Source: a virus
IMG/VR virus record: IMGVR_UViG_3300020424_000025
Span: 1 to 26,252 of that record
Length of the DNA stretch: 26,252 nucleotides
Direction: 5' to 3' (one strand)
A program made the translations under genes and the position numbers. The stretch's first letter is position 1. Every line of letters starts with the position of its first letter. A model generated the notes under the pieces. It was not told the DNA's origin. It ran no database searches and saw only the letters and a list, made by a program, of their open reading frames with translations. Positions 1,044-4,959 of this stretch are shown piece after piece.

Positions 1044-1199
1044 TTGAAAAAACCTAAAGATTACCTAGTCTACGACCCATTACAAAAATGCAACTATCGA
1101 ATCCTAAACGGAAAGCGCATATGGTTACAGCCTAAACCTAAAGAAGTGTACCTGTCCAAAAAAGAGCTAGACTCAGGACAGTTACCAATCTCGCTATGA
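1044..1199 (+). CDS. Small ORF of 51 aa leading the modification/packaging block
   Basis: The frame is open from 1020. The best start is the TTG at 1044, giving a basic 51-aa protein beginning (M)KKPKDYLVYDPLQ and ending in LPISL. Its stop overlaps the ATG of the ParB-domain gene as ATGA, so the two are likely translationally coupled. No family is recognised. The compact, Tyr/Lys/Pro-rich sequence and the overlap favour a real gene over chance, but the rare start codon and the lack of a ribosome-binding site keep confidence moderate. Confidence 0.5.
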   Translation: MKKPKDYLVYDPLQKCNYRILNGKRIWLQPKPKEVYLSKKELDSGQLPISL

Positions 1200-1813
1200 C
1201 CTCAACTCCAAGCTACCCAGTAGTTTCACCCGAGCATATTAAACAATCTAGAATAATAGATTTAACTCTATACAAAGGCAATCCTAGAGTTCATAGTGAA
1301 TTACAAATTGAAAGATTAGTGAACTCTCTAAAAGAATTTGGCTTTACTAATCCTGTACTTGTTGATGACACAGGTAATGTTATCGCTGGTCATGGTCGTA
1401 TTGCAGCTGCAAAAAAGATAGGACTAGAGACAGTTCCAACTATTACACTCTCTCATCTATCAGAAGATCAGCGTAAAGCCTACATAATCGCTGATAATCA
1501 GCTGGCCTTAAACTCTAGTTGGGATGATGATTTACTTAAGATTGAACTAGAAAAGCTTTCAGAAAGTGGTTTCGATTTATCTGTTTTAGGCTGGGGCGAA
1601 GATATACCAACCTTTGCAGATGAGCCAGACTACGGCAGTTTAGATGATTTTGACGACCCTACTGGTGAACTGGCTAATGATGTAATGAAAGCAATACAGA
1701 TAGAATTTAGACCAGAAGATTATGAAGAGGCGAAAGAAGTAGTAGCACAAGCTAGAAAAAAAGGAATCTACGTAGGCCAAGAACTTGTAAACGCGCTTAG
1801 ATCATTAATCTAA
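1196..1813 (+). CDS. ParB-like N-terminal domain protein
   Basis: The 205-aa protein has a ParB/sulfiredoxin-type domain at about residues 15-125. It contains the GNPRVHS box near residue 29 and the GHGRIAAAKKIG motif (Gly65-His66-Gly67-Arg68), equivalent to the GHRR motif of ParB proteins. YIIADNQLAL and WDDDLLKIELEKL follow, as in phage ParB-methylase fusions. In those fusions an adenine methylase domain comes next; here there is only an acidic linker and an EFRPEDYEEAKEVV helical tail, so it is a stand-alone ParB domain. Known ParB domains bind nucleotide and DNA. In phages they recur beside DNA-modifying enzymes and terminases. Start is ATGA-coupled to the 51-aa ORF and the stop overlaps the methyltransferase start (TAATG). 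Confidence 0.85.
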   Translation: MTSTPSYPVVSPEHIKQSRIIDLTLYKGNPRVHSELQIERLVNSLKEFGFTNPVLVDDTGNVIAGHGRIAAAKKIGLETVPTITLSHLSEDQRKAYIIADNQLALNSSWDDDLLKIELEKLSESGFDLSVLGWGEDIPTFADEPDYGSLDDFDDPTGELANDVMKAIQIEFRPEDYEEAKEVVAQARKKGIYVGQELVNALRSLI

Positions 1814-2514
1814 TGAAGTTAACCAAAACTTCTTTAAACGGAGTTCAGTTCTTCTACAGAGAAGGCTACTCCGATATTAAGACTTTCAATGAGGTTTTTA
1901 TTGATAAATCTTACCTAAAAAAAGGTATGGAGATTCTTAATAATGAAAGTTGGCTAGATTGTGGCGGTAATGTTGGTGCTTTTTCTCTATTAGCAGCTTC
2001 TAAAGGTGCATCTGTAATAACTTATGAGCCTGACCCTTTTAATTGTGAATTAATTGAAAAAAATGCAAAACTTAATGGCTTTCAGAATGCCATAACAGTT
2101 AAACAAGCTGCCTTAGTGCATGACTTTAGAAAAGATACAACCTTATCTATTGCTCAAAATGGTAATGTGTGGCGTAATACCATAATGAAAAAAAAGAGTA
2201 ACAAAGCTATAAAAGTACCTTGTTTAAATTTTGATGAACAATCTGTATTAGCTGATAACTGCAAGATGGACATAGAGGGTGCAGAGATTCCAATACTTAC
2301 CCATACAAAAAGTAGTTTTAATAAACTTGTTTATGAGTGGAGTTTTGATATTGACCCAATGTTGCCAAAGATATGGAAAGTTATAGAAAAACAAAAGATC
2401 AAATACAAAGTAGAAGCACCATACAAAACAATCCACTATGAGGAAAGAGAGATTAAGTTATGGGGTAATCGCTGGTTCCCGCGTTGCATTATGGTTTATT
2501 GTTTTAAAAGATGA
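1813..2514 (+). CDS. FkbM-family SAM-dependent methyltransferase
   Basis: The protein is 233 aa with a Rossmann-type methyltransferase core. Motif I is WLDCGGNVGAF (residues 47-57, the SAM-binding glycine loop). An acidic ribose-binding residue follows in YEPDP (Glu72), and the FkbM signature KMDIEGAE lies at residues 151-158. FkbM enzymes usually methylate hydroxyl oxygens on small molecules or sugars. The gene sits between a ParB-domain gene and a TET/JBP-like oxygenase, with a 1-nt overlap upstream and a 4-nt overlap downstream. This placement makes a DNA-base substrate plausible, for example a hydroxymethylated pyrimidine made by the neighbour. That substrate is inferred; virion glycan methylation is an alternative. 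Confidence 0.82.
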   Translation: MKLTKTSLNGVQFFYREGYSDIKTFNEVFIDKSYLKKGMEILNNESWLDCGGNVGAFSLLAASKGASVITYEPDPFNCELIEKNAKLNGFQNAITVKQAALVHDFRKDTTLSIAQNGNVWRNTIMKKKSNKAIKVPCLNFDEQSVLADNCKMDIEGAEIPILTHTKSSFNKLVYEWSFDIDPMLPKIWKVIEKQKIKYKVEAPYKTIHYEEREIKLWGNRWFPRCIMVYCFKR

Positions 2515-3296
2515 AACTACCTGAACTAATCCTGAAGCCTGTAACTTCTCCTTTAAAGATTGGAGATAGTGTAGGCGGTTTCGAGCCTAATATTTTTGAA
2601 GATTGCATTCTAATAGACCCAGATGGTACTCCTGTGGGTTTGTTTATAAAAACATTGCCAGACGATTTACAGAACCTTGTGAATATAGCTGACAGAGAAA
2701 TACATACTAAACGCGTACCCAAATCAGAAATGAAAAGGTCTAGCGGTCTACATAATAAAAAAGCTGAAGTATTGCAATATTCAACTATTCTTGGTTCATG
2801 TCCACCTAAACCACATATGAGAAGGCCATACGCAACTAGATCATCTGTTCATTCTGTAAAAAGTGCTAATACTTTTGTTAAAGCAATGTTTGCAGCTGGT
2901 ATAAAATCTTTTGAAATAGTAAAAAAATATATTCCAACTGTTGCTGAAAATCATCTGTTTAAGATTAAGCAAAGAATCCCTGACAACTGGCGTTTCGCTA
3001 ATAATTTCAGTTCTACAATCTCAAATTGCAACATATCCGCACCAGTTCATCAAGATCACGCCAACGTAAAAGGTGCTATAAATATGATAATTACCAAAAG
3101 ACGTAACAGTAAAGGAGGTAACTTACACGTACCTGATTACAATGCCACGTTTGACCAAACCGATAACTCATTATTGGTATATCCAGCTTGGCGTAATCGA
3201 CATGGAGTTACCCCAATTATCCCTACTCATCAGGGAGGGTATAGAAACTCTCACGTTTGGTATGCGCTTGATTCCTTTCACAATCTAGAAAAATAG
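2511..3296 (+). CDS. TET/JBP-like 2-oxoglutarate/Fe(II)-dependent dioxygenase
   Basis: This 261-aa protein carries the residues of a double-stranded beta-helix dioxygenase in order: HQD (His180-x-Asp182) and GGNL (residues 202-205). The distal HGVTP follows (His231, Thr234-Pro235), then Arg245 in YRNSHVWYAL. In TET and JBP proteins the iron is bound by HxD plus a distal His in an H-x-x-T-P context. 2-oxoglutarate is held by an Arg about 15 residues later with R-x-S spacing; this protein has HGVTP and R-N-S with a 14-residue gap. Such enzymes hydroxylate the methyl group of 5-methylcytosine or thymine in DNA. ATGA-coupled to the methyltransferase and TAGTG-coupled to the small terminase. The target base is unknown and no cytosine C5-methylase is visible here. 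Confidence 0.72.
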   Translation: MKLPELILKPVTSPLKIGDSVGGFEPNIFEDCILIDPDGTPVGLFIKTLPDDLQNLVNIADREIHTKRVPKSEMKRSSGLHNKKAEVLQYSTILGSCPPKPHMRRPYATRSSVHSVKSANTFVKAMFAAGIKSFEIVKKYIPTVAENHLFKIKQRIPDNWRFANNFSSTISNCNISAPVHQDHANVKGAINMIITKRRNSKGGNLHVPDYNATFDQTDNSLLVYPAWRNRHGVTPIIPTHQGGYRNSHVWYALDSFHNLEK

Positions 3297-3619
3297 TGCA
3301 AAAAAAGAAGGCTACACAGTCAGAAAAAGATTATAGAACTTACAGAATTGCAAGCTTACTTGCACGTGGAGTAACGCGCTCAGAAATCATAAAATATACC
3401 GCGGCTGAGTGGGGGTTGAAGTTAAGACAGACAGAGCAGTATATCCAAGACGCGCGTATAGTTCTCAAGAAAGATTTTGACATTGACAGAAGGCAATTTA
3501 CCGCGGACATTTTAAGCCAGCTTTCTACCCTACAAAAAGAGGCTAGAAACAACAACCAATTACACGTTGCTTTAGGCTGCATTAACGCTATGGCAAAGAT
3601 TGCACAAATAACAACATGA
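3296..3619 (+). CDS. Terminase small subunit
   Basis: A GTG start overlaps the oxygenase stop (TAGTG), giving 107 aa. Residues about 15-50 form a helix-turn-helix-like segment (YRIASLLARGVTRSEI, then LRQTEQYIQDARIVL). A longer helical oligomerisation region with LSQLSTLQKEARN follows. The length, helical composition and position immediately before the large subunit are typical of small terminase subunits, which recognise the packaging site on concatemeric phage DNA and present it to the motor. The stop overlaps the large-subunit ATG as ATGA. Sequence identity alone would not be conclusive; the call rests on both HTH and context. Confidence 0.82.
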   Translation: MQKKKATQSEKDYRTYRIASLLARGVTRSEIIKYTAAEWGLKLRQTEQYIQDARIVLKKDFDIDRRQFTADILSQLSTLQKEARNNNQLHVALGCINAMAKIAQITT

Positions 3620-4959
3620 GCATCTTAACTAGAGAGGGTTCAGTATTAGATATTGCAGGCACTAGTGGAGTTTCGATTGATATAAAACAATTATTAGCAA
3701 ATATAAGAAATGATCTTCACGAACCACAAAAAGAGTTTTTTGATAATAGTAATACTGAAATATTAGGACTATCAGCTGGTTATGGTGCAGGCAAGACTAG
3801 GGCATTATGTGCAGTTTGCGTTAAGTTAGCTGCCCTTAATGTCGGCTTTACTGGTGCAGTTATGGAGCCTACAGGCTCATTGATTCGAGACATCTGGCAA
3901 AATGACTTTGAACAGTTCTTAGAACACTATGAAATACCTTACTCATACAGAGCTAGTCCATTACCTGAATACATTTTGCACTTACCTGAAGGGGATACAA
4001 AAATACTATGTAGAAGTTTCGAGAACTGGTCTAGGATTATTGGTCTAAATTTAGCTTTCGTATTAGCAGATGAAATAGACACTGTAGCACCATCTGTTTG
4101 TGATAGAGCATTTCCAAAGATTTTAGGTAGATTGAGGTCTGGCAATGTCAGGCAGTTTTGCGCAGCAAGTACACCAGAGGGTTTTAGATGGATGTGGAAT
4201 ACCTTTGGCTCAGAAGCAGCACAGGAAAGAACAGACCGAAAGCTAATAAGAATGAGAACGCAAGATAACCCGCATTTACCAGAAGATTTTATAGAAAGAA
4301 TGCAAGCAAACTACGACCCTAGTATGTTGCAGGCCTATCTCAATGGAGAGTTTACTAACCTCACAACTGGTCAGGTATATGACAGATTCGTAAGAGAAGA
4401 TAATATTGTAGATACTATTCCAAGTATCCAGATGGAGCCATTAAGGATAGGGGTAGACTTTAATATTGGAAATATGAGCGCTGTTATAGGGATTAAATTA
4501 GGAGAAAAATTGTTAATAATTGATGAGATTGTGTCAGCACATGATACAGACGCACTTGCACAGGAAATACAGCGTAGATATCCTACTAATAAGATTTACG
4601 TCTACCCTGATGCTTCAGGAGGCAATCGTAGTACTAATGCAGCAAAAACAGACATACAGATTCTTGAATCCTATGGCTTCACTAATCTCTCGGCCAAAAG
4701 CAATCCAGCAATTAGAGATAGAGTCTCTGCCGTACAGGGTTTGTTATGCAACGGAAAAGGGCAAGTACGTCTACAAATCAATGCCAGTTGCAAACGTATG
4801 ATTGAATGTCTAGAGTTACAGAGTTATACAGATAAGGGCGAACCAGACAAAGACGCTGGTTATGACCATATGAATGACGCACTAGGATATTTAGTCTGGA
4901 GAGAGTTTAATCCATTATTTGCACGTGCGGGCAAACGTACAGGCATTAGAATATATTAA
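3616..4959 (+). CDS. terL: Terminase large subunit (packaging ATPase and nuclease)
   Basis: The 447-aa protein has an N-terminal ATPase domain with Walker A GYGAGKT (residues 55-61). Walker B is VLADEID with Asp152-Glu153, and the coupling-type motif AASTPEG follows. The C-terminal RNase H-like nuclease has its acidic residues in GVDFNIGN (Asp281), VYPDASGG (Asp332) and YDHMNDALGYL (Asp417 and Asp421). The enzyme cuts concatemeric DNA and pumps it into the prohead through the portal. All catalytic motifs are present and the length is usual for the family. The start is ATGA-coupled to the small subunit. It is followed after 26 nt by the portal gene. Confidence 0.96.
   Translation: MSILTREGSVLDIAGTSGVSIDIKQLLANIRNDLHEPQKEFFDNSNTEILGLSAGYGAGKTRALCAVCVKLAALNVGFTGAVMEPTGSLIRDIWQNDFEQFLEHYEIPYSYRASPLPEYILHLPEGDTKILCRSFENWSRIIGLNLAFVLADEIDTVAPSVCDRAFPKILGRLRSGNVRQFCAASTPEGFRWMWNTFGSEAAQERTDRKLIRMRTQDNPHLPEDFIERMQANYDPSMLQAYLNGEFTNLTTGQVYDRFVREDNIVDTIPSIQMEPLRIGVDFNIGNMSAVIGIKLGEKLLIIDEIVSAHDTDALAQEIQRRYPTNKIYVYPDASGGNRSTNAAKTDIQILESYGFTNLSAKSNPAIRDRVSAVQGLLCNGKGQVRLQINASCKRMIECLELQSYTDKGEPDKDAGYDHMNDALGYLVWREFNPLFARAGKRTGIRIY

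What the first reader, a model, noticed from the sequence alone, without database searches (positions are those of the whole stretch)
1044..4959. Probable DNA base-modification cassette fused by start/stop overlaps to the terminase genes
Seen: a 51-aa ORF, ParB domain, FkbM methyltransferase, TET/JBP-like dioxygenase, small and large terminase are chained by ATGA, TAATG, ATGA, TAGTG and ATGA junctions, with no gap anywhere. Known: TET/JBP enzymes oxidise 5-methyl pyrimidines in DNA, and phage ParB domains often neighbour modification enzymes. Inferred: the phage modifies its genome, and the modification proteins are made in fixed ratio with the packaging motor, perhaps so that modification happens on, or is read at, concatemers just before packaging.
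Basis: partly seen in the sequence, partly recalled or inferred. Interest (0 to 1): 0.82.

Follow-up and report, generated by a model that had tools for sequence, protein, structure and literature searches.

The report
Swappable DNA-base modification cassette in cyanophages
This ocean virus carries a small gene set that probably oxidises bases in its own DNA with a TET-type enzyme and then caps them with a methyl group, and relatives of the virus swap the capping enzyme for sugar- or amino-acid-adding enzymes in the same position, so the resulting DNA base is probably new and can be tested in a virus already in culture.

Summary
In detail: 51-aa ORF, ParB, FkbM methyltransferase, TET-like dioxygenase, putative small terminase and large terminase are joined by five 1- or 4-base overlaps. 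The window is an IMG/VR fragment close to Prochlorococcus siphophages MED4-117 and P-HS2. The dioxygenase is a TET/JBP relative: AlphaFold pLDDT 93, the top 26 PDB fold hits are all TET-family enzymes, and the Fe/2OG residues are invariant. The new point is that the gene between ParB and TET is a replaceable slot. In 237 dereplicated loci (sample enriched for FkbM) it holds FkbM (159), TET-associated glycosyltransferase (31), other glycosyltransferases (11), kinase + amidotransferase + amino acid:DNA transferase (14) or nothing (18). The TET tree needs at least 27 slot changes. FkbM and a glycosyltransferase never share a slot. FkbM is therefore most likely the decorating step. P-HS2 showed no other modification enzyme in the genes scanned and no C5-methyltransferase or thymidylate synthase, so the predicted product is a 5-(methoxymethyl)pyrimidine, more likely from thymine. 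The base itself is unmeasured.

The parts
1044..1199 (+). 51-aa ORF (TTG start), conserved small gene of unknown function, only in close relatives
   Evidence: protein-level conservation with excess third-position differences; relatives
1196..1813 (+). ParB-domain protein, 205 aa, with a C-terminal tail (KAIQIEF..YEEA) shared by cassette-associated ParBs
   Evidence: PF02195 3.9e-7; phrog_620/498; tail found in one ORF in each of 324 loci
1813..2514 (+). FkbM-family SAM methyltransferase, 233 aa; occupant of the decorating slot
   Evidence: PF05050 2.6e-11, TIGR01444 58.6 bits; AlphaFold model pLDDT 92, class-I methyltransferase fold
2511..3296 (+). TET/JBP-like Fe(II)/2-oxoglutarate dioxygenase, 261 aa; H180, D182, N185, H231, R245 invariant
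   Evidence: PF12851 5.2e-6, sub-threshold; invariant columns; model pLDDT 92.8; top PDB folds TET2, CcTet, NgTet1, CMD1
3296..3619 (+). 107-aa ORF, putative small terminase (by position only)
   Evidence: phrog_34910, unknown function
3616..4959 (+). terminase large subunit, 447 aa
   Evidence: PF17289, PF03237, phrog_2

Best explanation
ParB-FkbM-TET is a phage DNA hypermodification cassette. SHOWN by sequence and structure: a TET/JBP-type dioxygenase, an FkbM-type methyltransferase and a ParB-domain protein are encoded together, and the FkbM position is a slot that relatives fill instead with glycosyltransferases or with kinase + amino acid:DNA transferase genes. INFERRED: ParB helps bring the enzymes to phage DNA. 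TET hydroxylates the 5-methyl group of a pyrimidine already in DNA, more likely thymine (to 5-hydroxymethyluracil) than 5-methylcytosine. FkbM then O-methylates that hydroxyl with SAM, giving a 5-(methoxymethyl)pyrimidine that hides phage DNA from nucleases, as the sugar or amino-acid caps do in relatives. The place before the terminase reflects operon layout rather than proven coupling to packaging.
For: TET identity: invariant HxD..N, H and R across 43 proteins including actinophage relatives; PDB profile hits are mainly TET2, CMD1, NgTet1 and CcTet, at weak E-values; the top 26 fold hits are all TET family. A 31%-identical TET that passes the Pfam cut-off is directly overlapped by an FkbM relative in another phage (L366). 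Slot exchange: TAGT PF20691 above cut-off; kinase + GATase + ADDT PF18724; other glycosyltransferases; class counts; at least 27 label changes on the TET tree, with close pairs such as L052 FkbM / L083 TAGT. FkbM relatives are tied to TET: 69 of 70 new loci recruited by FkbM alone carry TET, and the exception ends just after FkbM. Thymine: no PF00145 in MED4-117, P-HS2 or 13 of 15 other contigs, and no thymidylate synthase in any of 17. The 37 P-HS2 genes scanned show no glycosyltransferase, ADDT, kinase or second methyltransferase.
Against: No nucleoside measurement exists. The FkbM acceptor is inferred from slot logic; the fold search gives only generic class-I methyltransferases. One locus (L365) has FkbM together with ADDT, kinase and an FAD-type oxidoreductase, so FkbM may sometimes act on another group. 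Eighteen loci have an empty slot, so decoration is optional. A C5-methyltransferase occurs in two close relatives, so 5mC as substrate is not excluded. The thymine argument is indirect, since TET-associated glycosylation is also known from cytosine pathways.
Confidence: 0.6

Rival explanations
1. FkbM acts first: it methylates a base (C5 of cytosine, or adenine) and TET then oxidises that methyl group, as in C5-methyltransferase plus TET systems.
For: TET2-type enzymes act on 5mC and CcTet also on 6mA (PMC12730594); phages that pair a C5-methyltransferase with TET are known (same paper). FkbM precedes TET in the operon.
Against: FkbM is repeatedly replaced by enzymes that act after oxidation (TAGT, ADDT) or is absent while TET stays. 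FkbM lacks C5-methyltransferase features; the nearly invariant Cys150 is Val in L209 and L312.
Confidence: 0.15
2. FkbM methylates something other than the base, such as a sugar or amino-acid group added by another enzyme, a phage protein or a host glycan; the TET product stays as a hydroxymethyl base.
For: FkbM-family enzymes are mostly O-methyltransferases of small molecules and glycans (general knowledge). L365 combines FkbM with an amino-acid conjugation set. A different FkbM relative lies outside the slot in L084.
Against: The slot FkbM subfamily is tied to TET in essentially every locus recruited by FkbM and replaces base-decorating enzymes. No glycosyltransferase or ADDT was found in the P-HS2 genes scanned.
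Confidence: 0.15
3. One reading: overlaps with the terminase genes give fixed stoichiometry, so modification is made or read on concatemers immediately before packaging.
For: All five junctions overlap in the window; the cassette stays upstream of terminases of different lineages.
Against: TET-TerS overlap in only 38 of 92 relatives, repeats inserted inside the cassette of some, overlaps common genome-wide; no terminase annotated near the cassette in Prairie.
Confidence: 0.05
4. The dioxygenase is a non-DNA 2OG oxygenase (protein, glycan or metabolite).
For: The Pfam Tet_JBP score is below the curated cut-off; the RefSeq name is 'queuine tRNA-ribosyltransferase'; 2OG oxygenases and O-methyltransferases occur in capsule or metabolite clusters of cyanophage jumbo phages (PMC7824862).
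Against: All 26 top PDB folds are DNA-acting TET enzymes; catalytic motif conservation; swap partners are DNA-base enzymes.
Confidence: 0.05

Closest known systems
Thymidine hypermodification cassettes of actinophages (Gordonia CaiB, Rhodococcus Tonitrus; PMC9302106, PMC11955845)
   Same: ParB-domain gene first, then TET-like oxygenase, then decorating genes upstream of the terminase; 4-bp overlaps reported in CaiB.
   Different: There the decorators are ADDT/aGPT-PPlase and a kinase and lie after TET; here a single FkbM lies between ParB and TET. TET proteins are only about 21-28% identical.
Phage TET cytosine hypermodification with C5-methyltransferase and glycosyltransferases (Burke et al. 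2021, known to me only through citation in PMC12730594)
   Same: TET oxidises a pyrimidine 5-methyl in DNA and a second enzyme decorates the hydroxyl; TAGT occurs in the same slot in relatives.
   Different: No C5-methyltransferase in MED4-117 or P-HS2; a methyltransferase replaces the glycosyltransferase.
JBP / base J of kinetoplastids
   Same: TET/JBP oxygenase acting on thymine in DNA, then a second enzyme on the hydroxymethyl group (general knowledge).
   Different: The glucosyltransferase is replaced by FkbM; phage context.
Carboxymethylcytosine system (CmoX/CmoY) of Synechococcus phage S-B43 (PMC12783734)
   Same: Cyanophage cytosine hypermodification, often near a ParB-domain gene.
   Different: Different chemistry; no mention of TET or FkbM in that paper.

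Membership tests
TET/JBP dioxygenases | Tet_JBP domain at curated Pfam score | tested here: not met
   26.2 against 34.9 bits; actinophage relatives are also below it; the homologue in L366 scores 49.2 and passes
TET/JBP dioxygenases | HxD...H Fe(II) triad, 2OG-binding Arg, TET-type HxDxxN | tested here: met
   H180, D182, N185, H231, R245 invariant in 43 sequences; alignment to TET2 HRDxxN
TET/JBP dioxygenases | TET double-stranded beta-helix fold | tested here: met
   ranks 1-26 in PDB are TET2, CcTet, NgTet1, CMD1, E from 6e-11, TMq about 0.5-0.7
TET/JBP dioxygenases | oxidation of 5mC or thymine in DNA | not testable with these tools
   needs enzyme assay or nucleoside MS
FkbM methyltransferases | FkbM domain above curated cut-offs | tested here: met
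   PF05050 44.4 vs 22.7 bits; TIGR01444 58.6 vs 37.7 bits
FkbM methyltransferases | O-methyl transfer to a hydroxyl | not testable with these tools
   needs assay
Phage TET cytosine pathway | phage-encoded C5-cytosine methyltransferase | tested here: not met
   absent in MED4-117 and P-HS2; present in 2 of 15 related contigs; the window is a fragment and was not itself searched with this family
Thymidine hypermodification pathway | 5hmU kinase and ADDT/pyrophosphorylase | tested here: not met
   not among the 37 P-HS2 proteins scanned, but present in the same slot of related loci
Pre-replicative 5hmU/5hmC phages | thymidylate synthase-type hydroxymethylase | tested here: not met
   PF00303 absent in 17 of 17 records
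ParB partition proteins | full-length ParB family match with partition role | tested here: not met
   ParB_N domain passes but TIGR00180 is far below cut-off, 28.6 vs 58.45 bits

The most novel reading that the evidence does not exclude
Prochlorococcus siphophages and many environmental relatives carry a new DNA base, 5-(methoxymethyl)uracil (or -cytosine), made by TET hydroxylation followed by FkbM O-methylation, within a modular cassette whose capping enzyme is exchanged among phages much like an antigenic coat.
Probability: 0.4. Interest if true: 0.82.

Novelty: new variant of a known kind. Interest (0 to 1): 0.66.

Why it matters
It would add an O-methylated pyrimidine to the known phage DNA bases and show that phages diversify DNA camouflage by swapping one gene while keeping the oxidising enzyme and its ParB partner. 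It names cultured phages (P-HS2, MED4-117) in which the prediction can be checked with one mass-spectrometry run, and supplies a panel of natural TET-partner enzymes (FkbM, TAGT, ADDT sets) for DNA-base chemistry. It also corrects a widespread wrong name ('queuine tRNA-ribosyltransferase') on TET-like genes.

Tried and rejected
Packaging coupling through overlaps: junctions are not conserved. Queuine tRNA-ribosyltransferase annotation: rejected by fold. C5-methyltransferase source of 5mC: absent in the two cultured phage genomes. Nucleotide-pool hydroxymethylation: no thymidylate synthase. PADLOC defence match: only a ParB/MTase_II N-terminal overlap and a weak match for FkbM. Promoter and terminator scan: promoter count below shuffles, terminators near expectation, uninformative. 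FkbM fold search: only generic methyltransferases, not diagnostic. Literature for FkbM with phage DNA modification, or for 5-methoxymethyl deoxyuridine in phage DNA: nothing relevant in the held library; Iyer 2013, Lee 2018 and 2022 and Burke 2021 are not held, so prior mention of an FkbM-TET pair cannot be excluded. A genome-contig scan found only 4 loci.

Full report
Observation. Domain calls: ParB_N, FkbM (PF05050; TIGR01444) and terminase domains pass curated cut-offs; Tet_JBP is detected below its cut-off. The 107-aa 'small terminase' is assigned by position only. The 51-aa ORF is under protein-level selection in close relatives. Overlaps are denser in the cassette (5 of 5) than elsewhere in the window (8 of 26) but are a general habit of this genome.

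Origin. The window is a 26-kb virus record whose TET protein is 98-99% identical to that of the Prochlorococcus siphophages MED4-117 and MED4-184/P-HS2. P-HS2 is in culture; a T7-like packaging mode with 490-bp terminal repeats has been suggested for it (PMC7852597).

The dioxygenase. A 38-sequence alignment gave a confident AlphaFold model (pLDDT 92.8, pTM 0.90). Foldseek ranks 1-26 are all TET-family enzymes (CcTet, TET2, NgTet1, CMD1), followed by FTO and AlkB. His180, Asp182, Asn185, His231 and Arg245 are invariant even in actinophage relatives at 21-25% identity. The profile's PDB hits are mostly TET enzymes, at weak E-values. The PHROG and RefSeq name 'queuine tRNA-ribosyltransferase' is wrong for this protein.

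The replaceable slot. I recruited relatives by TET and, separately, by FkbM. In 237 dereplicated loci with ParB and TET in reach, the stretch between them holds FkbM in 159, TAGT in 31, a distinct GT-A-like enzyme in 9, another putative glycosyltransferase in 2 (no profile match; my reading of the sequence), kinase + GATase + ADDT in 14, nothing in 18, FkbM plus an ADDT set in 1 (L365), and 3 unassigned actinophage cases. The counts are not a population estimate, since FkbM was also used for recruitment. TAGT and ADDT assignments pass Pfam cut-offs for several representatives. No locus has FkbM and a glycosyltransferase in the slot; L084 has a different FkbM relative elsewhere on the other strand. 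On a 104-row TET tree the labels need at least 27 changes, with sister pairs carrying different occupants. Conversely, FkbM is tied to TET: of 70 new loci recruited by FkbM, 69 contain TET and the other ends just after FkbM. In L312 and L366 the order is TET then FkbM.

Mechanism. TAGT, ADDT and kinase enzymes decorate hydroxymethyl pyrimidines (from the family definitions and published pathways cited in PMC11955845 and PMC12730594). Exchange of FkbM with them, at a fixed place and with a constant TET and ParB, makes O-methylation of the TET product the simplest reading. Among 37 P-HS2 non-structural and cassette proteins, ParB, FkbM and TET are the only modification candidates. No C5-methyltransferase or thymidylate synthase is present in P-HS2 or MED4-117, which favours thymine in DNA as substrate; ADDT and kinase genes in the same slot of close TET relatives point the same way. 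Two near relatives do encode a C5-methyltransferase about 3 kb upstream of the cassette, so cytosine stays open. Product, acceptor group and base are inferred, not shown. Whether the host supplies 5mC was not tested.

ParB. The 324 loci in which the tail profile hits each carry one ParB-like protein ending in a KAIQIEF..YEEA-type tail, including L365, whose N-terminal half is not recognised as ParB_N. The tail may dock the enzymes (inference). ParB domains fused to or beside phage methyltransferases are common and of unknown role (PMC12704722; PMC12783734).

Packaging link. The cassette sits just upstream of terminase genes of several lineages, including a GpA-like one in L177 and L206 (my reading of the sequence). 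Translational coupling is not conserved: TET-TerS overlap in 38 of 92, against TerS-TerL in 89 of 91. So a positional association is shown, while fixed ratio or modification timed to packaging is speculation.

Comparison. Actinophages have ParB-TET plus ADDT/kinase or TAGT upstream of the terminase (PMC9302106, PMC11955845). The kind of system is therefore known. What appears new is FkbM as a frequent decorator in cyanophage-like and other environmental relatives, and the one-slot exchange. I found no paper in the held library that describes it, but key papers are not held.

Noticed in passing
L021, L022, L024, L029, L034, L064, L098 between FkbM and TET: A 190-290 nt non-coding array of short repeats (TTTACACC, GAGTAAAT) splits the cassette in one subgroup; absent at that place in the window, MED4-117 and P-HS2. 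It could be a replication or packaging site.
   Followed up: partly
L365:3372-7485: One locus combines ParB, FkbM, ADDT, an FAD-type oxidoreductase, a P-loop kinase and TET: the richest version of the cassette, and the only one with FkbM plus amino-acid conjugation genes.
   Followed up: partly
L366:3057-4648: A divergent TET that passes the Pfam cut-off overlaps an FkbM gene in a different, 53-kb phage contig with no ParB recognised next to it.
   Followed up: partly
L041:1219-2124 and contig of L047: C5-cytosine methyltransferase about 3 kb upstream of the cassette in two close relatives only.
   Followed up: partly
NC_020857 and NC_020847 records (L002 and hits H2, H5): RefSeq names are misleading: the TET-like protein is called queuine tRNA-ribosyltransferase, and the ParB protein is called DNA methylase.
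   Followed up: yes
window:6423-8708: Head-morphogenesis gene is one 761-aa ORF here and in P-HS2 but is annotated as two overlapping ORFs in MED4-117: a frameshift or a sequencing error.
   Followed up: no
L261, L262, L269, L253 slot: TAGT preceded by a nucleotidyltransferase-like gene and a HAD/kinase-like gene, suggesting phage-made activated donor for an unusual cap.
   Followed up: no
window:1640-1813 (ParB tail): C-terminal KAIQIEF..YEEA tail shared by cassette ParBs even when the ParB_N part is unrecognisable.
   Followed up: partly
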